NCBI GenBank assembly: GCA_027487485.1
Contig: JAIYDN010000069.1
Location: forward strand, 33,197 to 97,196
Source: Planctomycetaceae bacterium
GTDB taxonomy: Bacteria; Planctomycetota; Planctomycetia; Pirellulales; Pirellulaceae
Direction: 5' to 3'
DNA: 64,000 bases
Below the pieces are notes generated by a model. That model had not been told where the DNA came from. It made no database searches and saw nothing but the letters and a program-made list of their open reading frames with translations. This document shows positions 30,535-46,850 of the stretch, piece after piece. Both the position numbers and the translations under genes were made by a program. Each line of letters starts with the position of its first letter. The first letter of the stretch is position 1.

Positions 30535-30917
30535 ACCAATCTAGCTGGTAACACCGTTCCAAAAGCAAGCAAGATCCAAAAAGTACAGAGTTGCTTTACT
30601 TCAGAACGAATCAGCAGAATGTGGGGTGGGGAAGCTAGGCAGGAAGTGGGGAAGGTGGCCAAAACGACCGAAGTCTCAGTGAAATGTGTAACCCTATTTT
30701 ACACCAAGATAGTTTCCACTTCACCCACAAAACGCATTGAAAGTTGAGCCAGCACGGATGCTCAAATACAAACGGTGCCTCCCGCCGGTTGCTTTGGTTT
30801 TGGGAATATGATAGCTACAAACGGTACCACCTGTTAGCTACAAACGGTATCACCCACCTATTGTTTTTGCTACGTCACCTACCTTGATGAGGGTTCGCGT
30901 TAACGGACCAGTGAGAC

Positions 30918-31043
30918 GGTCACACAAAGGCACGAAGACACAAAGGAAGAACTCGTCAAGACCATCACAAAACCCTTGGTTTGAAACTTGTTCCAGCATA
31001 TATTGAATTTGCCTACTTCGTGCCTTTTTTTCGTGCGAGAACT
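30918..31043. repeat. Palindrome-ended unit A, upstream of the GxxExxY gene
   Basis: Left cacacaaaggcacgaagacacaaaggaag and right acttcgtgcctttttttcgtgcgagaa are near reverse complements; same architecture as the two downstream copies. Confidence 0.7.
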
Positions 31044-31048
31044 AGAAA

Positions 31049-31438
31049 ATGCGCCCCCCAATCCCTGAAGAACTGGAACAGATCGCCAAAGATGTAGTCG
31101 ATGCTGCGATTAAACTGCATGTTGCTCTCGGGCCAGGTTTACTCGAAAGTGTCTATTCTGTCTTGCTCGCGAAAAAGCTCACGGAACGGGGATATCGAGT
31201 CGAGCGTGAGAAAGATATTCCGATCATCTTCGAAGGCGTTTGCTTCGAGGCAGGATTCCGGGCTGATCTAGTAATCAGCGAATGTTTTATCGTTGAACTC
31301 AAATCGGTTGAAAAGCTTGCTCCAGTCCACGCCAAGCAACTGCTGACCTATCTCAAGCTTTCCAACATGCGACTTGGATTGCTGATCAACTTCGGCGAGG
31401 AGCTACTGAAAAACGGGATCAAGCGCATAGCCAATTGA
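31049..31438 (+). CDS. GxxExxY protein (PD-(D/E)XK-like, TIGR04256-type)
   Basis: VVDAAIKLHVALGPGLLESVYSVLLAKKLTERGYRVEREKDIPIIFEGVCFEAGFRADLVISECFIVELKSVEKLAPVHAKQLLTYLKLSNMRLGLLINFGEELLKNGIKRI. Confidence 0.93.
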   Translation: MRPPIPEELEQIAKDVVDAAIKLHVALGPGLLESVYSVLLAKKLTERGYRVEREKDIPIIFEGVCFEAGFRADLVISECFIVELKSVEKLAPVHAKQLLTYLKLSNMRLGLLINFGEELLKNGIKRIAN

Positions 31439-31809
31439 TTTCCAACACGCACCGGAAAATCACACACAAAGACACGAAGACACAAAGGAAGAATGGTCGA
31501 TTTGGGAATACAAACTTGCCGTTGTTGAATCGATTCTCTTTTCAGCTTCATTGCCAATTGAACTTCGTGCCTTTGTGCCTCCGTGCGAGACACTTTTGCT
31601 CGGGGGGACGAACGGGATCAAGCGCATAGCCAATTGATTTCCAACACGCACCGGAAAATCACACACAAAGATACGAAGACCCAAAGGAAGATTGGTCGAT
31701 TTGGCAATATAAACTTGCCGTTGTTGAATCGATTCTCTTTTCAGCTTCATTGCCAATTGAACTTCGTGCCTTTGTGCCTCCGTGCGAGATACTTTTGCTC
31801 GGGGGGACG
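31412..31809. repeat. Exact-period 199-bp tandem duplication (two copies) carrying palindrome-ended units B and C
   Basis: Copy 1 31412-31610, copy 2 31611-31809 (aacgggatcaagcgcatagcc...cggggggacg); about 7 substitutions by eye, no indels; copy 1 begins within the GxxExxY 3' end. Confidence 0.92.
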
Positions 31810-31886
31810 AACGGTGCCACACACCGGTTGCTTTGGTTCTTTCAATGTTGAGCCGCAGCAATGAAGGCTGCTGCGTTCGCAGAATG

Positions 31887-46511: not shown

Positions 46512-46850
46512 GTAGCCGGACTGGCCCCAGTTCGGTTGGCGTGTGCGCCCGAAGTCTGGCGACTCCGGCTACGAAGGTTGGCACGCTGGGTGAAGTGATT
46601 TGTGAGAATCTGGAAGTCCTGAGTCCTGAAATGTAAAATCAAAAACGGTAGCCGGACTGGCCACAGTTCGGTTGGCGTGTGCGCCCGAAGTCTGGCGACT
46701 CCGGCTACGAAGGTTGGCACGCTGGGTGAAGCGATTCGCGAGAATCTGGAAGTCCTGAGTCCCGAAATGTAAAATCAAAAACGGTAGCCGGACTGGCCAC
46801 AGTTCGGTTGGCGTGTGCGTCCGAAGTCTGGCGACTCCGGCTACGAGTTA
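46512..46850. repeat. 136-bp tandem repeat (two full units plus a palindromic partial third)
   Basis: gtagccggactggccc/acagttcggttggcgtgtgcg...ctccggctac starts at 46512, 46648 and 46784. Confidence 0.92.

What the first reader, a model, noticed from the sequence alone, without database searches (positions are those of the whole stretch)
30918..31809. Three palindrome-ended units around the GxxExxY nuclease-like gene: one abutting its start, two just after its stop
Each unit has a left end cacacaaagRcacgaagacMcaaaggaag and a right end acttcgtgcctttgtgcctccgtgcgaga (degenerate in unit A), whose inner cores are reverse complements (CACAAAGRCACGAAG/CTTCGTGCCTTTGTG). Unit A ends only a few nt before the ATG at 31049; units B and C follow the stop. 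The left arms resemble sequences I associate with GxxExxY loci in other environmental genomes (memory only). The arrangement suggests a mobile or self-templating element in which a PD-(D/E)XK-like protein acts on its own hairpins, somewhat like RAYT/REP.
Basis: partly seen in the sequence, partly recalled or inferred. Interest (0 to 1): 0.75.

Follow-up and report, generated by a model that had tools for sequence, protein, structure and literature searches.

The report
Nuclease gene bracketed by mobile palindromes
A small DNA-cutting-enzyme gene found across many bacteria is repeatedly bracketed by its own characteristic palindromic repeats, which also lie scattered through the same genomes and in one genome have clearly spread as miniature jumping elements; this looks like an unrecognised counterpart of the known RAYT/REP system built on a different kind of enzyme.

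Summary
In detail: three palindromic units flank a GxxExxY gene (31049-31438). Units B and C are a 199-bp, 97% tandem duplication that begins inside the last 27 nt of the ORF. In the genome, exact cores occur only here and in an orphan three-unit array 41 kb away. Across 142 GxxExxY loci from many phyla the same architecture recurs: arms are three copies of an 8- or 9-nt word starting CAC/CGC. In 60 related genomes palindromes lie within 400 nt of 18/32 GxxExxY genes, versus 2/30 PIN and 4/30 four-helix-bundle genes; RAYT genes (16/30, positive control) carry different palindromes. Word length follows protein subfamily. Up to 183 arms per genome are dispersed away from the gene, mostly in genomes that have GxxExxY. 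In a congener (G021), a 557-bp element, [TIR - arm - GxxExxY - arm - TIR] flanked by TA, has spawned over 25 internally deleted MITE-like copies. The protein is a Cas4/lambda-exonuclease-like PD-(D/E)XK nuclease under strong purifying selection. Best reading: a RAYT/REP-like mobile system using a PD-(D/E)XK nuclease. That the nuclease itself moves the palindromes is inferred, not shown; a TA-targeting transposase acting in trans remains possible.

The parts
30918..31043 (.). Palindromic unit A: left arm 30921-30951 (CACACAAAGGCACGAAGACACAAAGGAAGAA), right arm 31015-31043 (ACTTCGTGCCTTTTTTTCGTGCGAGAACT, degenerate)
   Evidence: (I3, D2); ssDNA fold z -2.5
31049..31438 (+). GxxExxY protein, 129 aa, PD-(D/E)XK nuclease with conserved E33, D73, E83-x-K85, Q97 (window protein numbering)
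   Evidence: AlphaFold pLDDT 94, Foldseek best matches Cas4/LHK-Exo/MGME1
31412..31610 (.). First copy of the 199-bp tandem duplication: last 27 nt of the ORF plus palindromic unit B
31463..31590 (.). Palindromic unit B (arms 31463-31493 and 31562-31590)
31611..31809 (.). Second copy of the 199-bp tandem duplication: remnant of the ORF 3' end plus palindromic unit C
31662..31789 (.). Palindromic unit C (arms 31662-31692 and 31761-31789)
   Evidence: ssDNA fold z -2.6

Best explanation
GxxExxY genes and their word-palindromes form a mobile genetic system that works like RAYT/REP. A short autonomous unit, [palindrome or split-palindrome arms + GxxExxY gene], moves or amplifies. Its palindromic parts, alone or with a remnant of the gene's 3' end, spread as non-autonomous MITE/REPIN-like copies. 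The PD-(D/E)XK protein most likely recognises the repeated words of its own palindrome and cuts it (as a hairpin or cruciform); repair or re-insertion then yields new copies, tandem arrays and internally deleted derivatives. SHOWN by sequence: bracketing of the gene, dispersal, deleted derivatives with shared junctions in G021, the word-length/subfamily match, gene plus palindrome found together in unrelated flanks, conserved catalytic residues. INFERRED: that GxxExxY binds and cuts these palindromes and is the enzyme that moves them.
For: Bracketing: word-palindromes near the gene in many phyla (22 loci on both sides). Same-genome controls: 18/32 GxxExxY loci vs 2/30 PIN (p 2e-5) and 4/30 four-helix-bundle (p 4e-4); RAYT positive control 16/30 but with word-type arms in only 2/30. 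Intergenic-only word-IR density is 3.5-5 times higher near the gene (p 9e-4 to 1e-6). Word length follows protein clade: 14 of 15 GFLE-clade loci have 9-nt words and none 8; 20 of 27 GPGLLE-clade loci have 8-nt words; fewer changes than all shuffles. Genome level: median 11 arms with GxxExxY vs 1 without (p 1.6e-4; p 0.001 outside the genus). G021: 557-bp element with 18-bp TIRs, TA ends, single GxxExxY ORF, 56 TIR sites (controls 0), at least 25 deleted copies, shared deletion junctions. L050/L058 and L049/L055: homologous gene plus palindromes in unrelated flanks. Tandem partial gene copies beside palindromes in several loci, reversed-query control 0. Window protein and unit most like a Verrucomicrobial locus, 76% aa identity. 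Purifying selection, omega 0.03-0.13.
Against: Two GxxExxY-lacking genomes carry many arms (G010 42, G029 29). In G005 the listed arms of the abundant type lie far from its four GxxExxY genes. About 20 Sphingomonad loci lack palindromes. The G021 element has TA ends, as in IS630/Tc1-mariner MITEs, so another transposase could move it. No precise empty site was found. All functional steps lack experiment.
Confidence: 0.6

Rival explanations
1. GxxExxY is a passenger: the palindromes/TIRs are MITEs moved in trans by an ordinary DDE transposase (IS630/Tc1-mariner type, TA target), and the nuclease gene was captured inside them.
For: In G021 the outer ends are TA + 18-bp TIRs, typical of IS630-derived MITEs. 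MITEs can carry ORFs.
Against: In G021 24 of 28 TIR loci contain the GxxExxY-derived word arm at a fixed offset; the longest intact element found encodes only GxxExxY; no paired TIR enclosing another gene was seen in the loci read, though a collapsed IS may be missing from a MAG. It does not explain the match between word length and protein subfamily, nor the constant bracketing of GxxExxY in phyla where no such TIR was seen.
Confidence: 0.22
2. The palindromes are ordinary REP sequences moved by RAYT (HUH Y1) transposases and merely collect near GxxExxY genes.
For: Most of these genomes also encode Y1 transposases (50 of 60), and REPs are known in Planctomycetes (PMC3733652).
Against: RAYT genes in the same genomes are flanked by different, GTAG-like palindromes (word-type in 2/30 against 13/32 for GxxExxY, p 0.002). 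Arm-rich genomes such as G003 and G029 show no Y1_Tnp hit.
Confidence: 0.06
3. GxxExxY is a domesticated palindrome-processing or defence nuclease; the palindromes are its operator/regulatory sites or substrates and do not move by its action.
For: Units abut the start codon; PD-(D/E)XK relatives such as Rpn act in phage defence (PMC10327210) and recombination (PMC5350276); the fold is Cas4/MGME1-like.
Against: Units lie on both sides and in tandem arrays, are dispersed in tens to hundreds of copies, and carry remnants of the gene 3' end, which suggests mobility or amplification rather than an operator.
Confidence: 0.12

Closest known systems
RAYT / REP (REPtrons, REPINs; IS200/IS605-like TnpA-REP)
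   Same: Single-domain nuclease-type gene bracketed by palindromes; many dispersed palindromic copies, few genes; tandem clusters; match between protein lineage and repeat class. Enrichment beside the gene is similar in size.
   Different: Enzyme is PD-(D/E)XK, not HUH-Y1; no GTAG tag was recognised; arms are about three 8- or 9-nt words; gene remnants travel with the units.
MITEs of PD-(D/E)XK (YhgA/Rpn, Transposase_31) elements, proposed for Ca. Thiomargarita (PMC4853749)
   Same: Miniature inverted-repeat elements suggested to derive from an element that encodes a PD-(D/E)XK protein.
   Different: Rpn is a different PD-(D/E)XK family (PF04754), shown to be a largely sequence-nonspecific endonuclease (PMC5350276); in the passages read, word grammar and a cross-phylum GxxExxY association are not described.
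IS630/Tc1-mariner-type MITEs
   Same: TA ends and short TIRs in the G021 family.
   Different: No DDE transposase found in the element; internal sequence is GxxExxY-derived with word arms.
Cas4 / lambda-exonuclease-like / MGME1 nucleases
   Same: Closest solved folds (Foldseek E 3e-3 to 2e-2); weak Cas4 profile hit.
   Different: 129 aa, no conserved cysteines in the alignment, no CRISPR or recombination genes noted beside it here.

Membership tests
GxxExxY / PDDEXK_3 | Profile match above curated cut-off | tested here: met
   TIGR04256 133.8 bits (cut-off 35), PF13366 128.4 bits (cut-off 22)
GxxExxY / PDDEXK_3 | Intact PD-(D/E)XK catalytic residues | tested here: met
   E33, D73, E83, K85, Q97 invariant in 32 sequences
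RAYT/REP | HUH-Y1 tyrosine transposase (PF01797) as the associated gene | tested here: not met
   The gene's only Pfam match is PDDEXK_3
RAYT/REP | GTAG- or CGTC-tagged short REP | tested here: not met
   Arms read in full carry CAC/CGC words and no GTAG tag was seen; RAYT loci of the same genomes carry the different, GTAG-like type
RAYT/REP | Gene flanked by palindromes also dispersed in the genome | tested here: met
RAYT/REP | Protein binds and cleaves its palindrome | not testable with these tools
   needs biochemistry
MITE | Short non-autonomous copies with TIRs, derived from a coding parent by internal deletion | tested here: met
   G021: shortened copies from 139 bp, 557-bp parent; not shown with TIRs for the window's own family
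MITE | Target-site duplication | tested here: inconclusive
   TA at both ends of most G021 copies, but TA could be part of the TIR; no empty site compared
IS630/Tc1-mariner element | DDE transposase between the TIRs | tested here: inconclusive
   none found between paired TIRs in the loci read; the MAG may lack collapsed IS copies and no DDE profile was searched
Cas4 | Four Fe-S cysteines and CRISPR context | tested here: not met
   no conserved Cys in A1; no cas gene noted around the locus

The most novel reading that the evidence does not exclude
GxxExxY is the sole mobilising enzyme of a previously unrecognised class of bacterial mobile elements: a PD-(D/E)XK nuclease that reads the word length (8 or 9 nt) of its own palindrome and spreads it within and between genomes, making minimal elements of about 0.55 kb and their MITE/REP-like offspring in several phyla.
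Probability: 0.42. Interest if true: 0.87.

Novelty: new variant of a known kind. Interest (0 to 1): 0.75.

Why it matters
GxxExxY proteins are annotated in many environmental genomes, but only two open-access papers in the library mention the name, both in passing. The palindromes they travel with are abundant. If the link is causal, it gives a function to an orphan nuclease family, explains a large class of dispersed repeats, and offers a second RAYT-like system, with an unrelated enzyme, to test how bacterial palindromic repeats arise and spread. The word-length/subfamily match makes a simple prediction testable in vitro.

Tried and rejected
Rfam: no match. PDB by sequence: no match. PHROGs: none. 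Phage records: none; viral contigs: 5 loci of 2.9 million contigs; so not phage-borne in the main. Plasmids: 8 records, all predicted non-mobilizable. Literature searched with the repeat sequences as strings: no relevant paper. Palindromes as intrinsic terminators: loops are mostly 20-150 nt, and short-loop repeats were not enriched near the gene. A first intergenic control with short ORFs (70 aa) masked the repeats themselves and gave no significant enrichment; with 110- and 150-aa ORFs and word-type repeats it was significant. L048/L056 looked like an empty site but differ only in the loop.

Full report
WHAT IS THERE. The window lies in G000:C82:33197-97196 of a 7.49-Mb planctomycete genome; a congener's contig matched by length is titled uncultured Pirellula. 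The ORF 31049-31438 is a GxxExxY protein. The three units are real. Each arm is about three 8-nt words (CACAAAGR CACGAAGA CACAAAGG), outer end CAC, inner end AAG; the other arm is the reverse complement. The word grammar hits 8 times in the window, all here, against 0.11 expected. Single-strand folding is only moderately better than shuffles (z -2.5, -1.4, -2.6).

A TANDEM DUPLICATION WITH A PIECE OF THE GENE. Units B and C are two 199-bp copies, 97% identical, starting in the last 27 nt of the ORF. The only other exact cores in the genome form an orphan array at C82:22165-22690, 41 kb away: three further units of about 200-212 bp, two of which carry the same remnant GGGATCAAGCGCATAGCCAATTGATTT (one with a single change). 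A comparable arrangement (palindrome, then a partial gene copy one unit away) occurs in L285, L055, L064/L065, L052 and L084; reversed-query control 0 in 142 loci. So [palindrome + gene] appears to duplicate in tandem and then lose most of the gene copy.

THE ASSOCIATION IS GENERAL. In 80 GxxExxY loci from many phyla, inverted repeats with 12-180 nt loops are 5-8 times denser within 300 nt of the gene than beyond 1 kb (7.3 and 5.2 against about 1 per 10 kb). The arms share the grammar: CTCAC/ACCAC at the outer end, words CRC-purines inward. In 60 relatives, 18 of 32 GxxExxY loci have such repeats within 400 nt, against 2/30 PIN and 4/30 four-helix-bundle loci. RAYT genes, the positive control, have palindromes in 16/30, but of another type; word-type palindromes occur at 13/32 GxxExxY, 2/30 RAYT, 1/30 PIN and 4/30 four-helix-bundle loci. 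Restricting to intergenic sequence lowers the enrichment of word-type repeats to 3.5-5 fold, still significant; a cruder mask that hid the repeats gave none. About 20 Sphingomonad loci have none.

WORD LENGTH FOLLOWS THE PROTEIN. Among 42 loci with clear words, the GFLE clade has 9-nt words in 14 of 15 and the GPGLLE clade 8-nt words in 20 of 27 (Fisher 2e-6, which treats related loci as independent). On the protein tree the period needs 9 changes against 16.2 shuffled, none of 200 as low. The window genome shows both kinds of gene: its second GxxExxY (C22) carries ATCAGTG-type repeats. The window protein groups with a Verrucomicrobial (Chthoniobacter) protein, 76% identical, whose unit ends in GCCTTTGTGCCTCCGTGTGAGA against GCCTTTGTGCCTCCGTGCGAGA here: the gene and its palindrome appear to have travelled together.

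DISPERSED COPIES. A stringent arm pattern finds up to 183 arms per genome with about 1 in the control. Genomes with GxxExxY have a median of 11 arms, those without 1 (p 1.6e-4; 0.001 outside the genus); G010 and G029 are exceptions. Most copies are far from the gene, often in tandem arrays of about 199 bp. The window's own genome also holds at least ten scattered CACAGAG-type units of about 90 nt with related loops, without GxxExxY remnants within 1.5 kb; congeners carry GxxExxY genes bracketed by CACAGAG words (L061-L063).

A CLEAR MOBILE FAMILY. Congener G021 has 35 GxxExxY matches, mostly fragments. Most of them belong to one element family: 18-bp TIRs (left end AAGCACCTGTACATAAGT; right end, read inward, AAGCACCTATGCATAAGT), TA at the ends, word arms inside, and in the 557-bp full-length copy a single ORF, GxxExxY, whose start overlaps the left arm (MDLQDLQDDR). 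There are 56 TIR sites (control 0), copies from 139 to 557 bp in different flanks, and several copies share the same deletion junction, as expected if a deleted copy moved again. 24 of 28 TIR loci read carry the word arm near a fixed offset.

THE PROTEIN. Residues E33, D73, E83, K85 and Q97 are invariant; the model (pLDDT 94) is nearest Cas4, lambda-exonuclease-like and MGME1 nucleases, weakly. Omega is 0.03-0.13 where it can be computed. A published RT survey reports a place where its pipeline gave GxxExxY and not the expected cas4 (PMC8934634), consistent with this kinship.

HOW IT LIKELY WORKS. The anatomy matches RAYT/REP logic: an enzyme tied to a palindrome class, few genes, many palindromes. 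The economical model is that the nuclease recognises word-palindromes, cuts them, and repair or re-insertion copies them. This last step is inference. The main rival is a TA-specific DDE transposase moving the G021 family in trans; it would not by itself explain the word-length match or the recurrence across phyla. Rpn proteins (PD-(D/E)XK, RecA-independent recombination, PMC5350276) and the Thiomargarita proposal of PD-(D/E)XK-derived MITEs (PMC4853749) are precedents, hence the rating 'new variant of a known kind'.

LIMITS. Many genomes are MAGs; multicopy IS may be collapsed. Thresholds for inverted repeats were chosen by me. Loci taken as best hits are not a random sample, and related loci are not independent. 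No precise empty site was recovered, and TA duplication is suggested, not proven.

Noticed in passing
window 30768-30799, 30840-30871, 31807-31838: A second short repeat, AACGGTGCCNCNCRCCGGTTGCTTTGG, lies on both outer sides of the GxxExxY locus; similar AACGGTGGGTGGCACC-type and GGTGGGTGCC-type repeats occur around palindromic units elsewhere in this genome (C42) and in G005.
   Followed up: partly
window 46512-46846: 136-bp tandem array (2.5 copies) with GTAGCC...GGCTAC ends, which looks like a classical GTAG-type REP array, a different palindrome class from the one studied.
   Followed up: no
L240, L251, L252 (four-helix-bundle TIGR02436 loci): Some four-helix-bundle genes sit beside their own, different word repeats (ACCAAGAACCAAGAACCA, AGGAGAAAGTAGAGAGTAGAA, GGTTTAGGGTGGAGGGT); a separate repeat-gene link may exist there.
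   Followed up: no
L050 (G023:C41) and L287 (G021:C146): The sequence downstream of the GxxExxY gene reads like the start of a type I restriction specificity (HsdS) gene, suggesting insertion into restriction-modification operons; judged by eye, no profile run.
   Followed up: no
G010 and G029: Genomes with 42 and 29 word arms but no GxxExxY match; candidates for recent loss of the gene or for another mobiliser.
   Followed up: no
G000:C44, C42 (L035, L037): Another dispersed palindromic repeat, GCCGTAACTGCGTCC...GACTTGTTACGGC, lies near the CACAGAG-type units.
   Followed up: no
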